Origin: Venturia oleaginea
Lineage: Eukaryota; Ascomycota; Dothideomycetes; Venturiales; Venturiaceae
Direction: 5' to 3'
NCBI GenBank assembly: GCA_013176395.1
Contig: JABMLP010000027.1
Span: 548,448 to 612,447 of the forward strand
Length of the DNA stretch: 64,000 nt
A program made the translations under genes and the position numbers. The notes below the pieces were generated by a model. The model had not been told where the DNA came from, searched no databases, and worked only from the letters and a program-made list of their open reading frames with translations. This document shows, in pieces, positions 7,894 through 55,792 of this stretch (its first letter is position 1; every line of letters begins with the position of its first letter).

Positions 7894-8779
7894 GGTAGAT
7901 TGTTTGACAACGTCTGTTCGACATTTCGGCAGGATCTATGTATTGGCGGCGCAATCGTGGAGGACGAGCCTGAGTGGCTTGACGCTTTGTTGGAGAGGCA
8001 AAAAGGGGGAGGCTGTTTGACCATCGGGAGGCTGCTCCCTACCGTGCTCTCCTCTCAATAAACTTTCCTTCGCCCACATCTCACAAACACAAAACTTCTT
8101 TTCAAGCCCATGTCTGTCCATCTGGCCAAGAGATACCACGGTAGAGACTTTTTGAAGTCCTAGAGCTGGGTGTTGCATTGACTAGACCAGACCAGCTTTG
8201 GAAGCCATCGAAATGATGGGTAAACTCTTGACACCAAATACATACATGATCTTTGAAGCCTTATGATCAACAAGTGAGTCCGCACACCCACACCAGAATA
8301 ATTTCAGTCTTTCCGGTATAACTTCAACATTAATCAGCACTCGATTTTCAATCTCTCAGCGTTCATCAAACAATCTGCAGCACTGAAAAACAACCATGTG
8401 ATCGAGTTGACCAAAGCCTGCTATTTCAGCATTTTTACCCATCCATATTCATTTCTGTATATACCATCATTCTATACCTCAAGATATAAACACCGGCCAG
8501 GGAAGTAAGGCTATAGAGCGTCATTTTCGAGTGAAATAAAGATCCTTGTTATGTCCAGGTTCATCATCTCCCGTTTTATAGCCATCGATAACGATCCTAC
8601 AAAGCCCCACCCCAATATTTCTTCTTCGAAAGTACCCTCATATTGATTCTTGACGTGATTCTCAAAACGCTCTGAATCACTTTGCTGTTGCTCAGTTACA
8701 ACATCCGCTAAAGACCGAGGTTTAACAATTGTTGTTGTTTATGCTATATAAGATTAACTGAAATTTCATGTCTAGCAGT
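7894..8779. other. Intergenic stretch upstream of the tRNA gene
   Basis: No gene is supported. One 80-codon frame (8178-7936, minus) has no recognisable content. The sequence is moderately AT-rich and presumably holds the promoter of the gene starting at 7893 and 5' flank of the tRNA gene. Confidence 0.45.
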
Positions 8780-8913
8780 GGCAATGTGGCGGAGTGGTTA
8801 TCGCGATAGACTAGAAATCTATTTCCTTCGGGAGCACAGGTACTGTCGAAGTGGACTGAATCAGTAGAGACTGGTACTAATAACGATATCAGGTTCGAGT
8901 CCTGTCATTGTCG
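8780..8913 (+). tRNA. tRNA-Ser (anticodon AGA), T arm interrupted by a 53-nt insertion
   Basis: Acceptor GGCAATG pairs with CATTGTC (one G-T pair) and the discriminator is G8913. The D stem is GCG/CGC. The anticodon stem ATAGA/TCTAT carries loop CTAGAAA, giving anticodon AGA (Ser). A class II variable arm follows, TCC-TTCG-GGA. The A box TGGCGGAGTGG and B box GGTTCGAGTCC match the Pol III consensus, and a T run follows the discriminator. A 53-nt insertion at 8840-8892 sits between the variable arm and the T loop. Removing it gives a perfect T arm (ACAGG TTCGAGT CCTGT) and an 81-nt tRNA of normal serine type. There is no canonical intron at the 37/38 position. The gene could still be non-functional if the insertion is not removed. 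Confidence 0.85.
8840..8892 (+). other. Spliceosomal-type GT-AG intron-like insertion inside the tRNA-Ser T arm
   Basis: The insertion begins GTACTG, has a branch-site-like TACTAAT at 8875-8881, and ends ATATCAG. The branch-to-3' site distance of about a dozen bases matches the mRNA introns in this window. Cutting exactly at GT and AG joins ACAG to GTTCGAGTCC and restores the T stem. CAGGT occurs at both junctions, so the exact boundary is ambiguous by a few bases, but the GT-AG placement is one that works. Confidence 0.7.
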
Positions 8914-9151
8914 TTTTCTTTGCGTGCTTTTTTACTATTTGATAAAGGTAGAAAAAAGAGGTAGTACGCTGTAATTACCTTTTGCTTTTTAATTGGTGGC
9001 GACTCTGCTTTCTTTCTTTCTTCTGTGGAACGATTGCTTGGAAGGCTCTTCTTCTCAGTGAGGGATTGGGATGAGGATGTATGGAAGAGGTAAATTGAAT
9101 GATGTATGCGAAGGTCGAAACCTTCGATTCGAGATAGTACTCGCTATACTT
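8914..9151. other. Short intergenic region after the tRNA
   Basis: Contains the T-rich Pol III terminator directly after the tRNA and the 3' flank of the MFS gene. Nothing else is recognised. Confidence 0.5.
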
Positions 9152-26384: not shown

Positions 26385-27751
26385 TTCGATCACCCAACCC
26401 GTCGGATCACCCAACCCGTCAAAATTTCTTGGCACGACCATCTTATATTACGACTCTTTAATTTCATCGCTATTAACAATAGATTCTAAGTCCGTCGTGC
26501 TGCTATCTGATTCAGATGATATCTCGATATCTTTTTTACAAGTTCGCGCATTATGCCCAGTTGCGCCGCAGTGCCCACAGCGCCGTTGAGTTGGTCGGAC
26601 TGTTTCTTGATCACCACGTCCACGAGCCTTCTTCGATCCCTGAGGCGCTACAGACGCCTCTGCAGCTACCTGCGCTGCTGCAGTCCCATACTCTATAGTA
26701 CGACCTTGCTGGATCCACTTCCTTTTGCGCCATTTTCGCTTCGTCATTACTGCCAATTGCTCTTCAAGCTCGCGGTTGCGCGCAACAAGTAGAGCGTTTT
26801 GGTGCAGCATCAATTCAGCGCCCTTGACAAGCTGGGAAAAGCCTGCCTGCGCAGTAACTGGTGACCGAGTAAAAGACTCGCTTACGAGCTTGGATTGGGA
26901 TCCAAATTCATGAGTATTGCTTGGAGTCTTTGACTGCCACGGCGTTTCTGGGAGACGGGGTTCTGGCGGGGTACGTAGCCGTACTTCAAGGCGATCTAAC
27001 ACCACCTGCGCGTCGATAGGGACCAGCCCTACTGTCTCAAAGGCCTTTTGACAGTTCTCTTTTGTAAATACGTTGAAAAACGTGTCTTTGAAGGCAGGGA
27101 GAAAGCCTTCCTTGTTGATATAGTAGACGTGTGGGCGTGCCAAGTCCCGGACGCGTTGGGAGTACTTGCGCTTCAACGGCGAGAAGCAGACCACATCAAG
27201 GGGCTGGAGTATATGCGACGAGTGCAATGGCATGCAGAGGGTTAGGATCTTATTTTCGAGGCAGTAGTCCTTGAAATCCTGGCTGAGATGGCTCTCATGG
27301 CCGTCCAAAGCTCATCTGAGCGCTATACGAACCTCTCAGCCCACTTTTCGCCTACTGGCTCTCCACCGCGTATACCCAACAGTTTATCCGCCATATCTGC
27401 CACCTCACACAGCCGGGGCGCAAATCCTCGCGAATCGAGGTCGAGGATATATCGGACAAGCGTTTGCTCTTCGGTAATGGTAAGTTTCCGACCGTTTGGT
27501 GGTCTTTCGAGGATAAATGGGACTCCTCTGACGCGATCGGAGAGGGTTTGTTGTTTAACGTTGAAGGCGCTCGCAGCAGCCCGTTGGCTTCGGAGTTGGC
27601 CGGTATTCAAAGCTTGGATTGCAAGCTGAATTCTCCCTTCGTGTTGGAGTAGTAACTCATTACGTTGTTGAGACATTGTAGAATAAGAAGAGTAGTTGGG
27701 GTCTTGGCAAATTTTGACCGGTTGGGTGATCTGACGGGTTGGGTGATCGAA
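26385..27751 (-). mobile_element. Pogo/Fot1-like DNA transposon with an internal deletion
   Basis: Terminal inverted repeats start TTCGATCACCC and continue with a second GATCACCCAACC copy 17 bp further in. The flanking TA is duplicated (26383-26384 and 27752-27753). The minus strand encodes the transposase N terminus with its CENP-B/Tc5-type helix-turn-helix (27676-27323) and, in another frame, the C-terminal DDE region (27308-26448) with DGHESH, LQPLD and a CCHC knuckle (CGHCGATGHNARTC). The middle, with the first catalytic Asp of the FDETG motif, is missing, so the copy cannot make active transposase. Confidence 0.9.
26448..27676 (-). pseudogene. Deleted pogo-type transposase gene
   Basis: The N-terminal part (MSQQRNELLLQHEGRIQLAI... 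to EKWAERF) carries both halves of the CENPB-type DNA-binding region. The C-terminal part starts at MDGHESHLSQDFKDYC, the second catalytic Asp region, and contains HSSHILQPLD (third Asp), a coiled-coil segment (ARNRELEEQLAVMTKRKWRK) and a CCHC zinc knuckle. The junction near 27305-27325 both removes the middle and shifts the frame. Confidence 0.85.
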
Positions 27752-35634: not shown

Positions 35635-37450
35635 CTAGCGCCTATTCATCCTTGTGCGCATTCTCGTCATTCCCCCCTTGGAGACCGCCGCATTATCGTC
35701 CTCATGCGGTGGATCCTCAGTCTCTCGGTCATAGGCGTCCTGCCATTCTGTCAACCTCAATAGCGGACCATCTCGCTCGGGGTGATCCTGGTGGTAGAGC
35801 CTGAGCAGCTTCGGTGAGTTCTTAAAGCTCTCAGCATCATACCATGTATTATCTGGGTCCCAACCTTTCCATGATACCATGTATTGTAGCTTTTGTCGGT
35901 GAATACGGCTTCCAAGGATGGCCTCAACCTCCCACTCGACATGGCTGTGCACTTCGTAGGCATCATTTGGATCGTTGGTATTGATTTGACCCGGGAGCCC
36001 CTCTGTATCCGCTTTCCTCAATCGATCATAGTGAAAAACATTGTGTATCTTGTACGATTGTGGTAACTGAACCTCCCAACTATGTTCTTTTTTTCCAATG
36101 ATTGGAAATGGGCCTACCACAGGGTTATCCAACTTGTCAGACGGTCGATCAGTGCGCCAGGCTCTCTTGGTGACGTACACCATATCGCCTATGCCTGTGG
36201 TGTCGTCAAAGCCGAAGTCTTCAGGCCTGCGCTTCTTGTTTGCCTGCAGAGATTGCCGCTGTTGGGCCTTGAAGAGTTGAGTCTTTGCGAAGTTCCATGC
36301 CTCGTACATACGAGTAGCGTAACGTTGTGCTTCCCCGCGATTGAGCTTCTCAAGCGACGATTGTCCTTTCATTGGCTTGCGAGCCTCCCAATCGTAATGC
36401 ATTCTAGGCACAAAACCCATTTCAACCTCCGATGGCGATAAGCCCGTAGACTCATGAGGTGCCGACGGTGCAGCGAAGTCCATTGCAGGTAACAGCTCAG
36501 ACCAATTGTCTTGGTAATGATTGACAAAGATCCTTAGTTTCTGTTGCAATGCCTGGTTGACGATCTCAGTCTGGCCATCAGTTTGAGCATGTTCTGAGGT
36601 ACTCTTACGCAATTGGATGCCCAGAATAAGGCTCAATTCGTCCCAGAACTGCGACACAAATCTCGGATCCCGATCGCTGACAATAGTATCAGGCAGCCCA
36701 TACATAGATGCGGTAGATGTGTTTGTAGTACAGCCATGCAGCATCTTTGGCCTTCACTTCTTTGTGACATGGTAGAGAGAAAGGGCGCTTTCCTAGACGA
36801 TCCACTACTACCATGACATTGTCATATCCGTGCTTGTCTTTGTTGAGGGACATGAAATCCATTGAAACGTGCTGCCAGGGCCTCTCGAGTATTGGCAATG
36901 GTTTCAGCAATCCCGGAGTCTTGTCCCTAGGAACTGATGACCTCCTGCAATCCTGGCATGCCGCAATATATTGATCAATGTCTGCATTCATCCGCGGCCA
37001 GTAAAACTGCCGTGCGACAATCTTTCGAGTTTTGTTGCGGCCAGGGTGGGTAGAGGGTAATGTTGTATGTACCTCATCAAGTAGCTTTCGGCGGAGTTGA
37101 TCATTCTCTGGAATAAAAAGGCGACCCTGGTGTAATAGGAGTCCATCTTCAAGGCGGAGAGTCGTATGGTCATCGCTAGCGACGTCTCTGAACTGCTGCA
37201 GTGATTGTGCGGTCCGATTGGCGTTGAGTAGCTGGTCCACTAGGTGTAGCTGTTCTGCGTTGATGTTAAGCGCCTGGATCTGGGCACCAATCTGGTCATC
37301 TTTGATGAGCTGTATTGTGCGGGCTGCGTTGGCAATTGCCTTTTGTGACTTCAGTTCATCCGATTTCCGTGACAGGGCATCTGCAATGGTGTTTTCCTTG
37401 CCAGGGCGGTAGACAATAGTAAAGTCATAGTTACAGATACCTCTGACCAT
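35635..37450 (-). pseudogene. Gypsy RNase H end, integrase and chromodomain region
   Basis: Frame 37450-36689 begins with the RNase H end (YRPGKENTIADALSRK) and continues into the integrase zinc-binding HHCC part and the first core Asp (VSMDFMSLNKD). Frame 36744-35635 carries the second core Asp (DTIVSDRDPRFVSQF), Glu (AQTDGQTEIVNQAL) and a C-terminal chromodomain (KLQYMVSWKGWDPDNTWY). The frame change near 36720 breaks the integrase. Confidence 0.85.
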
Positions 37451-39462
37451 CGAGCTTGTCGTGCATTCAACATCCTCTTGGTGGTAAAGTATTCCAGTGC
37501 GCGGTGGTCAGTAATAGCCACAAATGGCTGCTGCAAACCTCTCAAAAATACGCTCCATTCTTCAAGGCCTTTGATTAATGCCAGTAGTTCCTTGTCGTGA
37601 ATCTCGTAGTTCAGCTCGTGTACGTTCATTGTCTTGCTGAAGAAGGCTACTGGGTGCCATTGGTTATCTTTTCCTTTCTGAGATAGGACACCTGCAACTA
37701 CTCCGTCAGAAGCATCAGTTTCCATCCGGGTTAGTAGCAAAGGGTCGTACAATGCGAGGACTGGCGCAGAGGTAAGGGCTTGCTTTAGCATATCAAAAGC
37801 TTCTATACACTCTTCGTTGAAATCAAAGATGTGTACTTTGCGAGTAAGCCGAATCAATGGGCGGGCCATCCTGCCAAAGTTCTCGATAAATCTCCGATAG
37901 AAGTTGCAGAAGCCAATGAAGCTTTGAACTTGTTTGACGGTGCGGGGCTGCTTCCAGTACTTAACAACAGCAATCTTGTCCGGGTCAACCCTGATGCCTT
38001 CGGTGCTGATGATGAAGCCTAGGTACTTGGTTTCAGTAACGTCGAACTCACTCTTTTTCATGTCACATTGTAAGCCTGCAGCGCGCAGTCTTTCAAGCAC
38101 CTTGTGAACGTGCTCTGTGTGCTGCAATAGGTCTTCCGAGAAGATGAGGATATCATCAAGGTATGCGGTGCAGAAGTCGTCAAGGTATTCCATTAGGATC
38201 GTATTCATGTACTTCTACCAGGTAGCAGGGCCATTAACCAGTCCCTCCATCATGACTTTGCATTTGAAACTTCCATATCGGGTGCGAAAAGTGGTGAGCT
38301 CCTCAGATGCTGGATCTAGCCTGATCCGGTGAAAGGCCTGGCGAATGTCTAGTTTGGTAAAGACCTTAGCTTTTGACAGACGTGCTATGATCTCAGTAAT
38401 TAGTGGAATAGGATACCTATCCTTCTTGGTCAGAGCATTGAGTTTACGATAGTCAATACAGAAGCGGAACTTCTGCTTCTCATCCACCGGCGTGGACTTC
38501 TTGACGATGAGTACAGGCGATGCGAATGGGGATGTGCTTGTCTCAATAAAGCCTGAGTCAAGATTCTTCAGTAGCCATTCTTTGACGAAGTTCAGCTCAT
38601 CCAATGACATGTTGTACAGAGGGCAGAATCCAGGCGAAGCCATGCCTCCACCTTCTTTGTAGGTTGCCAATCGATTCGAGTCTGCTTCTGAAAAGACATC
38701 CTTAAACTTTGCATGCTTTGCCGGTAGCTTGTTGTCAATGAGCTCCTTCATGTCCGCAGACTCATCTGCAGGTAGTCGTCCATCCAATGATGCCAACGAT
38801 AGCCTTAATCGCTGTGCATGGTCTTCAGGCGAGTCTCCTTTGGCTTCAGCTTGCTGCTGCGTCAGTTCACATATACGGAGCTCAACCTCATGCAATGATA
38901 TGGAGCCTGCGATGGCTTCCTTATCTTTTAAAGCTAGTCGAAATCCTGCAGCGCTGATGAGGCAGAGATCAACTCGGTCTTCTGAATACCAGGATCTGGT
39001 GCGATGGTCAAACTCCAATGCCTCAATCTCCACCTGATGGTTGCTTCTCTTGAGCTCTTTATCCATTATGTTGTATCCCCGGGCTCTACTCCATTGGAAA
39101 GAGTCTCCATAGCTGACGTACAGCTCTTCATTTTCATCCTCTTCGCTGTCAGTGCTATCCTCGAAATCAGATAGGTCTGAGCATCCACTGTCGGAATCGC
39201 TGTCAGGGTAGTCCTCATTAGGATCTTCTTTGACTGTTGGAGGTGGTGCTGGCGTGGTAATCTCGCGTAGAGTTGGCGTCAGTTTCGTGTTCTGCGGAAC
39301 TGAGGGCTGGTCCAAGGCCAAAGTCAAGTCAACTGGCTCATTCTGAGTCAATTTGCGCAGTCTTTTCGAAAAGGTATTGTCCAAATTAGGCCTAGCCTGT
39401 CCTGCTTGATGCCTGACCTGGCTAAGCCGTCCACCTTGATTCCTCCTATCCTGCAGTTTCAT
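37351..39462 (-). pseudogene. Gypsy reverse transcriptase/RNase H region with an in-frame stop
   Basis: Frame 39462-38215 ends in the RT fingers region (KDRYPIPLITEIIARLSKAK, VFTKLDIRQAFHRIRL). A TAG stop (CAG to TAG fits) precedes frame 38208-37351 with the catalytic box AYLDDILIFS and the RNase H start (METDASDGVVAGVLSQKG). A frame shift near 37440 leads to the next segment. Confidence 0.85.
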
Positions 39463-49844: not shown

Positions 49845-51667
49845 ACGTAATCCATCATCGAGCGGTACACACCACCGAGCGGTACACATTTTCGTATCCT
49901 CATCGATTGACCCACAATGCCACCACAACTAGTCAATACAAAGCCCAGAAAGAGGGTCAACTACTCCTTGCTCATGACGCTTATTTGAAAGGCCATTTTC
50001 CAAGTATTCGAAAGGCCGCTGATGCCTATTCTGTCCCATTTACTTCCCTTGCCTCCCGCCTTCGCGGACGCGCTTCACGCGTCGATTCGCGCCCAAATTG
50101 CCAAAAGCTTACGGATACGGAAGAGGAGGTCGTTGAGCATTGGATACTATCTATGGATGAAAGAGGTTATCCATTGACCGTTACTGGGTACGCGATGCGG
50201 CAAAAATCGTACTCGAGCAGCGTGTAGGCTCAGATTGCAAAATCGGTGTCAATTGGCCTCAGCGATACATCAACCGCCTCCCTAGCCTCAAATCGCGATA
50301 TTCATGCAGCTACGATAATCAAAGGGCAAGATACGAAGATCCAGCCCTTATTGGGGCCTGGTTTCGGCTTGTACAAAACACAATCGCTAAATACGGCATC
50401 CTCAATAACGATATCTACAACTTCGACGAAACTGGCTCTGCAATGGGCCTTGCAAGTACCTCACGCGTAGTTACTGCCTCAGATAGGCGTGGCAGACCCC
50501 CTCAATTACAGCCTGGCGATCGCGAATGGGTTACGGCAATCGAATCGATCAATGCGCTGGGTTGGAGTCTCCCGCCGATGGTGATCTTCAAAGGCAAGGT
50601 ACATATATCATCTTGGTACGAAAACAACAATCTACCGCCTGATTGGACAATCGCTTTGAGTACAAATGGATGGACTAATGACAAGCTTGGATTACATTGG
50701 TTAAAAGAGGTTTTCGAGCCAAATACAGCTGCAAGAAAGGTTGGTAGTTATCGACTACTAATTCTGGATGGCCACGGCAGCCACGCAACGCCAGAATTTG
50801 ATCAATTTTGTGCAGACCGGATGATTATTACTCTTTGTATGCCACCGCATTCATCACATCTTCTTCAACCTCTCGATATTGGTTGTTTTTCGGTCCTCAA
50901 GCGTACCTACGGCCACCAAGTCTCGGAATATATGAGGCTTGGCATAAATCATATCGACAAAATTGAGTTCCTTCACGCCTTTAAAATTGCTCGAATTAGT
51001 GCCCTAACACTAAGCAATATTCAACGCAGCTTCACTGCTGCCGGTCTCGTACCTTTTGATCCAGATCAGGTACTTTCAACCATCCAGATTAGGCCATCTA
51101 CCCCTACAGCGCCCTTGGCCGCAAACCAAGAGCAATGACAACCAGAAACACCTCAGAATCTAACCCAGTTAGAGCTGCAGGTAGCTACAATCAAAGGCTA
51201 TCTTAAGAGACGTTCAAAAAGCCCACCAACACCAACAGATCAGGCCCTTAATCAGCTTGTCAAGGGCTGCCAGATCGCGATGCAAGGCGCCGCTTTACTA
51301 GCTGCGGAAAATGAGAAATTAAGGGCTGCAAATGAGAGGCAGAAGCGAAAGAGGCAACTAAAAAGGAGATATATTAGTCAATCAAGCGCTTTAACTGTTG
51401 CAGAGGTCTCAAGCTTACTTCAACTTTCTAAAGAAGCTTCGGTTATCAGCAGTAACCAGGTTGATCAAGAGCCTTATATTGAGGAAGAACCACCAAATGA
51501 AGAGGAGAACATTGTTATTACTTGTTTTATTTGTCGCAGTGGTGACCATTTTGCAATCAACTGTCAGAAATATAGATAGGAATATTTAAAAATGAGAGAT
51601 TTATTGGTGCATAATAGAGTAATTGATGAGTATACGAAAATGTGTACCGCTCGATGGTGGATTACGT
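49845..51667 (+). mobile_element. Pogo-like DNA transposon 1 of a tandem pair, nearly full length
   Basis: TIR starts ACGTAATCCA and contains CGAGCGGTACACA (two copies 17 bp apart at the left end). Flanking TA is at 49843-49844 and 51668-51669. The plus strand encodes a transposase with CENPB-type HTH (about 49918-50227), FDETG, LLILDGHGSH and LLQPLDIGCF (the three Asp), and a C-terminal CxxC...C knuckle. It is interrupted by frame shifts near 50215-50400 and a TGA at 51136-51138. Confidence 0.9.
49918..51579 (+). pseudogene. Pogo-type transposase gene with frame shifts and a stop
   Basis: Segments 49918-50227, about 50230-50440 and 50443-51138 lie in different frames, then 51139-51579 continues in frame after TGA. 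All three catalytic Asp regions are present. The C-terminal coiled-coil (LAAENEKLRAANERQKRKRQ) and zinc knuckle (CFICRSGDHFAINC) are intact. Confidence 0.85.

Positions 51668-52993: not shown

Positions 52994-55792
<2,799 letters not shown>

What the first reader, a model, noticed from the sequence alone, without database searches (positions are those of the whole stretch)
8780..8913. Spliceosomal-type GT-AG intron inside the T arm of a nuclear tRNA-Ser(AGA) gene
Seen: an otherwise perfect tRNA-Ser, with A box, B box, anticodon AGA, variable arm and terminator, is split by 53 nt at the T stem. The insert starts GTACTG, has TACTAAT, and ends ATCAG about a dozen bases later, like the mRNA introns nearby. 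Removal at GT/AG restores ACAGG-TTCGAGT-CCTGT exactly. Known: nuclear tRNA introns of fungi sit at 37/38 and are cut by the Sen endonuclease; ectopic tRNA introns are described in archaea and red algae, and mRNA-type introns occur in fungal U6 genes, probably by reverse splicing. Inference: this may be the tRNA equivalent of the U6 case, or a newly landed intron. It lies between the A and B boxes, so transcription could persist.
Basis: partly seen in the sequence, partly recalled or inferred. Interest (0 to 1): 0.9.

Follow-up and report, generated by a model that had tools for sequence, protein, structure and literature searches.

The report
mRNA-type introns inside fungal tRNA genes
In a fungus that looks related to the apple scab fungus, many transfer-RNA genes are cut by introns of the messenger-RNA kind, sometimes two or three per gene, so that the messenger-splicing machine would have to help make the cell's tRNAs.

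Summary
Confirmed, and larger than the finding. Window 8780-8913 is a tRNA-Ser(AGA) split by a 53-nt GT...TACTAAT...AG insert at position 52/53. Without it, all 81 bases equal an intact copy elsewhere in the genome. In the same 46-Mb genome (a Venturia relative by protein similarity) I read 31 tRNA genes or relics with 45 such inserts at 14 positions of D arm, anticodon stem, variable loop and T arm. Each has one GT-AG placement (0.46 of 45 expected from random ends); 37 of 45 have CTRAY with 9-18 nt after the branch A (shuffles 5.6, in a wider range); none has a standard bulge-helix-bulge; ARAGORN reads 30 of 31 spliced forms as tRNA. Two Ser(GCT) genes share all exon bases but not their intron sequences. 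Leu-AAG (5 of 5), Leu-CAG (2 of 2), Pro-CGG (2 of 2), Arg-TCT (2 of 2, one damaged) and Gly-CCC (1 of 1) were found only split. U6 genes here carry the same kind of intron. Best explanation: spliceosomal introns removed from Pol III pre-tRNAs, beside ordinary Sen introns at 37/38. No RNA data; 5 of 31 look decayed; the census is partial. Ten searches of held papers found no such report.

The parts
8745..8751 (+). TATATAA, possible upstream Pol III TATA element
   Evidence: sequence; TATA-like in 8 of 21 such genes with at least 55 nt of upstream sequence held
8780..8839 (+). tRNA-Ser(AGA) exon 1 (A box 8787-8797, anticodon AGA 8813-8815, my count)
8840..8892 (+). 53-nt GT-AG spliceosomal-type intron at position 52/53; branch site TACTAAT 8875-8881
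8893..8913 (+). tRNA-Ser(AGA) exon 2; with the last G of the intron it holds a complete B box (8892-8902)
8914..8933 (+). T runs (TTTT at 8914, TTTTTT at 8928), probable Pol III terminator
   Evidence: sequence

Best explanation
The insert is a U2-type spliceosomal intron in a nuclear Pol III tRNA gene, one of at least 45 in this genome. Shown by sequence: GT-AG ends, a branch site at tight spacing, exact restoration of the tRNA, kept exons with diverged introns, and the same kind of intron in U6. Inferred: Pol III transcribes the whole gene; the unspliced RNA cannot fold a normal cloverleaf; the spliceosome removes the intron or introns first; end trimming, modification and, where present, Sen cleavage of the 37/38 intron follow. 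Where every copy found of an isoacceptor is split, the spliceosome would be an obligatory tRNA-processing enzyme.
For: 45 of 45 inserts have exactly one GT-AG placement; 0.46 expected from random ends. CTRAY 7-25 nt from the end in 37 of 45 against 5.6 in shuffles (all 37 lie at 9-18 nt); length 47-60 in 42 of 45; GTNNG in 41 of 45. Two introns of the nearby Ncl1 mRNA gene have the same signals (50 and 63 nt). ARAGORN: 30 of 31 spliced forms are tRNAs, 27 with the isotype and anticodon that I assigned; of the unspliced, 23 none, 6 wrong isotype, 2 right. Ser(GCT) C23 and C15: all 81 exon bases identical, two introns each, intron identities 0.55 and 0.57 against 0.46 and 0.49 shuffled. U6 genes with GT-CTAAC-AG introns. 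Isoacceptors found only as split genes, in searches that did find uninterrupted copies of others.
Against: No RNA evidence. For the window itself an intact identical gene exists, so the split copy need not work, and its 5' site is weak. 5 of 31 genes look decayed. The A-box pattern is absent from the unspliced DNA of 11 of 31 genes (3 of 31 lack it even spliced), the B-box pattern from 5 of 31 (3 of 31 even spliced). I recognised inserts partly by their GT-AG ends, so that count leans. The first pattern for the 52/53 class gave 19 hits against 23 in its control, only five of them split tRNA genes or relics. The census is partial.
Confidence: 0.86

Rival explanations
1. The inserts are ectopic tRNA introns of the archaeal/red-algal kind, removed by the tRNA splicing endonuclease (Sen) at bulge-helix-bulge motifs.
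For: Ectopic D- and T-arm introns are described in archaea, a red alga and nucleomorphs (PMC4090602, section 5 and passages).
Against: Standard 3-4-3 central helix in 0 of 45 (shuffles 0.96); relaxed offsets 7 of 45 against 8.0. It does not predict GT-AG, branch sites or the narrow length range.
Confidence: 0.04
2. The interrupted genes are pseudogenes: dead tRNA copies into which introns or other DNA landed, tolerated because intact copies exist.
For: Copies without insert of Ser(AGA), Ser(GCT), Leu(CAA), Ser(TGA) and Glu(CTC) exist; five split genes carry damage (C27, C19, C45, C5, and C20 with A at position 33).
Against: I saw no damage in the other 26 of 31 (by eye and ARAGORN). Ser(GCT) C23 and C15 keep all 81 exon bases while their introns differ almost as shuffled sequence does, which neutral decay does not give. 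Leu(AAG), Leu(CAG), Pro(CGG), Arg(TCT) and Gly(CCC) were found only as split genes.
Confidence: 0.07
3. Transposable introns (introner-like elements) are spreading by DNA transposition and happen to hit tRNA genes.
For: Introner-like elements are described in fungi (recalled; a title is cited in PMC11889510); flanking repeats of 0-5 nt occur.
Against: 9 of 45 introns searched against the genome hit only themselves; among 48 introns compared at E below 0.01 the only non-self match was 13 nt; the short repeats fit splice-site similarity.
Confidence: 0.03

Closest known systems
mRNA-type introns of fungal U6 snRNA genes
   Same: Spliceosomal GT-AG introns in a small Pol III RNA; found in this very genome.
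   Different: tRNAs are not spliceosome parts, so closeness to the catalytic centre, the usual reason given for U6 (recalled), does not apply; many genes, many positions, up to three introns per gene.
Introns of fungal U3 snoRNA genes (PMC5832005, passages)
   Same: Spliceosomal introns in a small structured RNA; that 2017 paper calls U3 and U6 the only small structured RNAs known to be often interrupted by an intron.
   Different: Different RNA; introns almost only in one stem-loop.
Spliceosomal introns in ascomycete rRNA genes (Cubero 2000, Bhattacharya 2000, as cited in PMC11889510, passages)
   Same: Spliceosomal introns in ascomycete structural RNA not made by Pol II.
   Different: Pol I rRNA, not tRNA. 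Reverse splicing is proposed in the passages I saw for group I introns of fungal rDNA and for an 18S intron family.
Ectopic tRNA introns of archaea, Cyanidioschyzon and nucleomorphs (PMC4090602, section 5 and passages)
   Same: Introns in D arm, anticodon stem and T arm; several per gene.
   Different: Cut by endonuclease at bulge-helix-bulge where known; GT-AG ends and branch sites are not described in what I saw.
Canonical nuclear tRNA introns at 37/38 (Sen)
   Same: Present in many of the same genes.
   Different: Other position, no GT-AG rule, protein enzymes.

Membership tests
U2-type spliceosomal intron | GT...AG ends | tested here: met
   45 of 45, one GT-AG placement each; 0.46 expected
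U2-type spliceosomal intron | 5' site consensus GTNNG | tested here: met
   41 of 45; the window insert (GTACTG) is one of the 4 without it
U2-type spliceosomal intron | branch site CTRAY at fixed distance | tested here: met
   37 of 45, 9-18 nt after the A; shuffles 5.6 for 7-25 nt; window TACTAAT, 12 nt
U2-type spliceosomal intron | looks like mRNA introns of the genome | tested here: inconclusive
   two Ncl1 introns match; a pattern count over the window gave 20 against 14 in the control at 47-60 nt but 96 against 130 in all
U2-type spliceosomal intron | removed as a lariat by the spliceosome | not testable with these tools
   no RNA data
Canonical nuclear tRNA intron (Sen) | position 37/38 | tested here: not met
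   14 other positions (assigned by me, tallied)
Archaeal-type ectopic tRNA intron | bulge-helix-bulge at the junctions | tested here: not met
   0 of 45 standard; relaxed 7 against 8.0 by chance
Introner-like element | near-identical copies across the genome | tested here: not met
   9 of 45 introns searched, self hits only
Functional nuclear tRNA gene | intact cloverleaf after removal | tested here: met
   window 81 of 81 equal to an intact gene; 30 of 31 by ARAGORN, 3 of them with another anticodon or isotype than mine
Functional nuclear tRNA gene | transcribed, spliced and charged | not testable with these tools
   no RNA data

The most novel reading that the evidence does not exclude
In this Venturiales-like fungus the spliceosome is an obligatory tRNA-processing machine: whole isoacceptors (Leu-AAG, Leu-CAG, Pro-CGG, Arg-TCT, Gly-CCC) reach the ribosome only after spliceosomal splicing of Pol III transcripts, some with two or three such introns plus a Sen intron; in one Gly gene two introns even flank a 4-nt exon (TGGT).
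Probability: 0.7. Interest if true: 0.95.

Novelty: new variant of a known kind. Interest (0 to 1): 0.9.

Why it matters
tRNA introns and mRNA introns are taught as two separate worlds with two separate machines. A genome where tRNA genes are invaded by spliceosomal introns joins them. It would show that the spliceosome works on Pol III transcripts that have nothing to do with the spliceosome, and give dozens of introns in genes whose exon sequence is nearly fixed, so that mechanisms of intron gain, such as reverse splicing into abundant nuclear RNAs, can be tested. It would also mean that tRNA finders can miss many genes of such genomes.

Tried and rejected
Bulge-helix-bulge endonuclease introns: rejected. 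A parent intron elsewhere in the genome: none found for 9 of 45 introns searched. Introns in other small RNAs: 33 of 33 listed 5S matches and 5 of 5 listed U2 matches (one below the cut-off) span no insert of intron size; the tool scores only its best candidates. Pol III termination pressure: no run of 5 or more T in 45 introns, but only 1.2 expected; runs of 4 or more 3 against 5.7; not significant. mRNA intron length by pattern in the window: 20 against 14 in the control at 47-60 nt, but 96 against 130 in all, so uninformative. Pattern for the 52/53 class: 19 hits against 23 control hits, five of them intron-bearing tRNA genes or relics; Rfam on 14 of the loci (one of them a decayed split copy that it did not list) gave one tRNA match. 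Pattern for the 51/52 class: 4 hits against 1 control; 3 were genes already known, the fourth (C14:980419) could not be read. ARAGORN's default run on the window found nothing. Not counted: the partial tandem pieces at C23:763700 (L148) and the many places of the B-box list (105 hits against 22 in its control) that I did not read, for example C17:384452 and C24:69045; of its 20 stretches read, 15 held tRNA genes and 5 did not (by eye).

Full report
What is in the window. Bases 8780-8913 hold a tRNA-Ser(AGA): Rfam's tRNA model covers it whole (44.2 bits). The gene is cut by 53 bases (8840-8892) that begin GTACTG, hold TACTAAT with 12 nt after the branch A, and end ATCAG. Spliced, the acceptor, anticodon and T stems pair, and the 81 bases equal an intact gene at C59:1044521-1044601 of the same genome. 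The insert ends in G, so the B box (GGTTCGAGTCC) is complete in the DNA. TATATAA begins 35 bases upstream of the gene and T runs follow it.

Where it is. The window is part of an unnamed 46.1-Mb genome (G000, contig C20). A DUF6601 protein of the window is 85% identical to Venturia inaequalis and V. nashicola proteins. For the Ncl1 protein the nearest hits are unnamed metagenome sequences (up to 91%), and the best named hit is Verruconis gallopava at 57%. V. inaequalis is in Dothideomycetes, Venturiales. I take the organism to be a Venturia relative; this rests on few proteins.

It is not alone. Searches of the whole genome and reading of stretches gave 31 tRNA genes or relics with 45 inserts outside the canonical site. 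By hand count over those further nuclear tRNA genes or tRNA-like copies have none; ten of these I saw only as hit spans. The searches score only their best candidates and many places were not read, so both numbers are lower bounds. Isotypes with inserts: Ser, Leu, Gly, Ala, Arg, Pro, Lys, Glu. Positions (my assignment, tallied): 13/14 (3), 15/16 (6), 18/19 (2), 20/21 (3), 21/22 (6), 26/27 (1), 29/30 (2), 30/31 (1), 47/48 (1), 50/51 (1), 51/52 (7), 52/53 (7), 53/54 (2), 57/58 (3). Thirteen of the 31 have two or three. A Gly(GCC) gene on C2 has two inserts separated by a 4-nt exon, TGGT. A Leu(AAG) gene on C59 has three plus a 37/38 intron.

They are of one kind. Each insert has 1 to 6 equivalent placements, and in all 45 exactly one is GT-AG; random ends would give 0.46. 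I recognised the inserts partly by these ends, so this count leans towards GT-AG, but in the stretches read I met no insert of this size at another position without them. Lengths are 47-89, median 53; 42 of 45 lie in 47-60. GTNNG is met by 41 of 45; the window's GTACTG is one of the four exceptions. CTRAY occurs in 37 of 45, with 9-18 nt after the A, against 5.6 in dinucleotide shuffles for the range 7-25 nt. In the Ncl1 mRNA gene of the window two introns (55415-55464, 50 nt; 53293-53355, 63 nt) have the same signals. A wider pattern count of mRNA-like introns in the window did not exceed its control in all (96 against 130; 20 against 14 at 47-60 nt), so the comparison with mRNA introns rests on those two.

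Removal makes tRNAs. ARAGORN, allowing introns, reads 30 of 31 spliced forms as tRNA, 27 with the isotype and anticodon that I assigned; the three others keep a 37/38 intron that it places differently, and one relic is not found. Of the unspliced forms 23 give nothing, 6 a wrong isotype and 2 the right one.

The exons are kept. Ser(GCT) genes on C23 and C15 share two intron positions and all 81 exon bases, yet their introns are 0.55 and 0.57 identical against 0.46 and 0.49 for shuffled sequence. Of 23 paralogous intron pairs that I chose, the clearest relatedness is among Leu(AAG) genes C2, C8 and C24 (z 3.1-4.6); the other pairs range from z -0.8 to 3.2, part of which shared splice signals will explain. 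Exon identity in that table (0.61-1.00) includes the 37/38 intron where present, pairs of different isoacceptors and a relic, so it understates conservation there.

Are they needed? Leu(AAG) was found in 5 of 5 copies, Leu(CAG) 2 of 2, Pro(CGG) 2 of 2, Arg(TCT) 2 of 2 (one with A at position 33) and Gly(CCC) 1 of 1 only with inserts. The same DNA searches did return copies without inserts of Ser(TGA), Leu(CAA), Ala(AGC) and Ser(AGA). Since the search scores only its best candidates and the assembly may be incomplete, this is strong but not final. For Ser(AGA) itself two genes without insert exist.

Against. There is no RNA evidence. Five of 31 look decayed: C27 (stem mismatches), C5 (a T-stem mismatch), C19 (acceptor and T stem), C45 Ala-like (not read by ARAGORN) and C20 Arg (A at position 33). 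The A-box pattern is absent from the unspliced DNA of 11 of 31 genes (3 of 31 even when spliced) and the B-box pattern from 5 of 31 (3 of 31 even when spliced). Only 8 of 21 with enough upstream sequence have a TATA-like element, so how the others are transcribed is open. The first blind pattern for the 52/53 class was no richer than its control (19 against 23), though five of its hits are such genes or relics.

Not another known kind. The standard bulge-helix-bulge is met in 0 of 45. Nine introns searched against the genome hit only themselves, so those are not copies of a mobile introner. The 5S and U2 matches listed show no such inserts. U6 does: of 7 U6 matches, two near-complete genes have an intron (C12, after CAGAGAA; C36, after GCATG), one degenerate copy on C2 appears to have one, and four are uninterrupted by their span.

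Mechanism. Most likely Pol III makes the whole precursor and the spliceosome removes the intron before the cloverleaf can fold. RNase P, tRNase Z and, where a 37/38 intron is present, Sen then act; Sen is thought to measure from the tRNA body (PMC4090602, section 5), so it should come after. The order is inferred. The origin may be reverse splicing into abundant nuclear RNAs, as proposed for group I introns and an 18S intron family of fungal rDNA (PMC11889510, passages); this is not shown here.

What is known. A 2014 review says that D- and T-arm insertions in eukaryotic tRNA genes are supposed to be mostly pseudogenes, describes ectopic introns in nucleomorphs and a red alga, and its text holds no word beginning 'spliceosom' (PMC4090602, passages and section 5). 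A 2017 paper calls U3 and U6 the only small structured RNAs known to be often interrupted by an intron (PMC5832005, passages). The tRNAscan-SE 2.0 paper treats noncanonical introns as archaeal in the passages I saw (PMC8450103). Ten searches of the held open-access library listed no report of spliceosomal introns in tRNA genes, judged by titles and abstract starts. Subscription papers and preprints were not covered.

Verdict. I score the mechanism at 0.86 and the obligatory-spliceosome reading at 0.7.

Noticed in passing
G000:C12:1178091-1178250 (L112), C36:59841-60006 (L113), C2:1122156 (L123): U6 snRNA genes with mRNA-type introns at two different sites (one copy degenerate), beside four U6 matches uninterrupted by their span.
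   Followed up: yes
window 53130-55600: The Ncl1 (tRNA m5C methyltransferase) gene is conserved, but near 53566 and 53917 the frame shifts by one base against homologs; assembly indels or a damaged gene.
   Followed up: no
window 35635-39462, 26448-27311, 50161-51135: Retroelement-like open frames (integrase/reverse-transcriptase-like, my reading of the translations) and two DDE_1 transposase matches.
   Followed up: no
L122 (G000:C15:296500-296720): Initiator-Met-like tRNA whose T arm and 3' end are followed by a repeated T-arm-like stretch.
   Followed up: no
L148 (G000:C23:763700-763960): Two tandem T-arm-like pieces, each preceded by a GT...AG stretch; possibly strongly split tRNA genes whose 5' parts were not read.
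   Followed up: partly
L053 and L054 (C19:646319-646392, C60:820814-820887): Identical tRNA-like matches with identical 40-nt flanks on two contigs, one near a contig end; a repeat or assembly duplicate.
   Followed up: no
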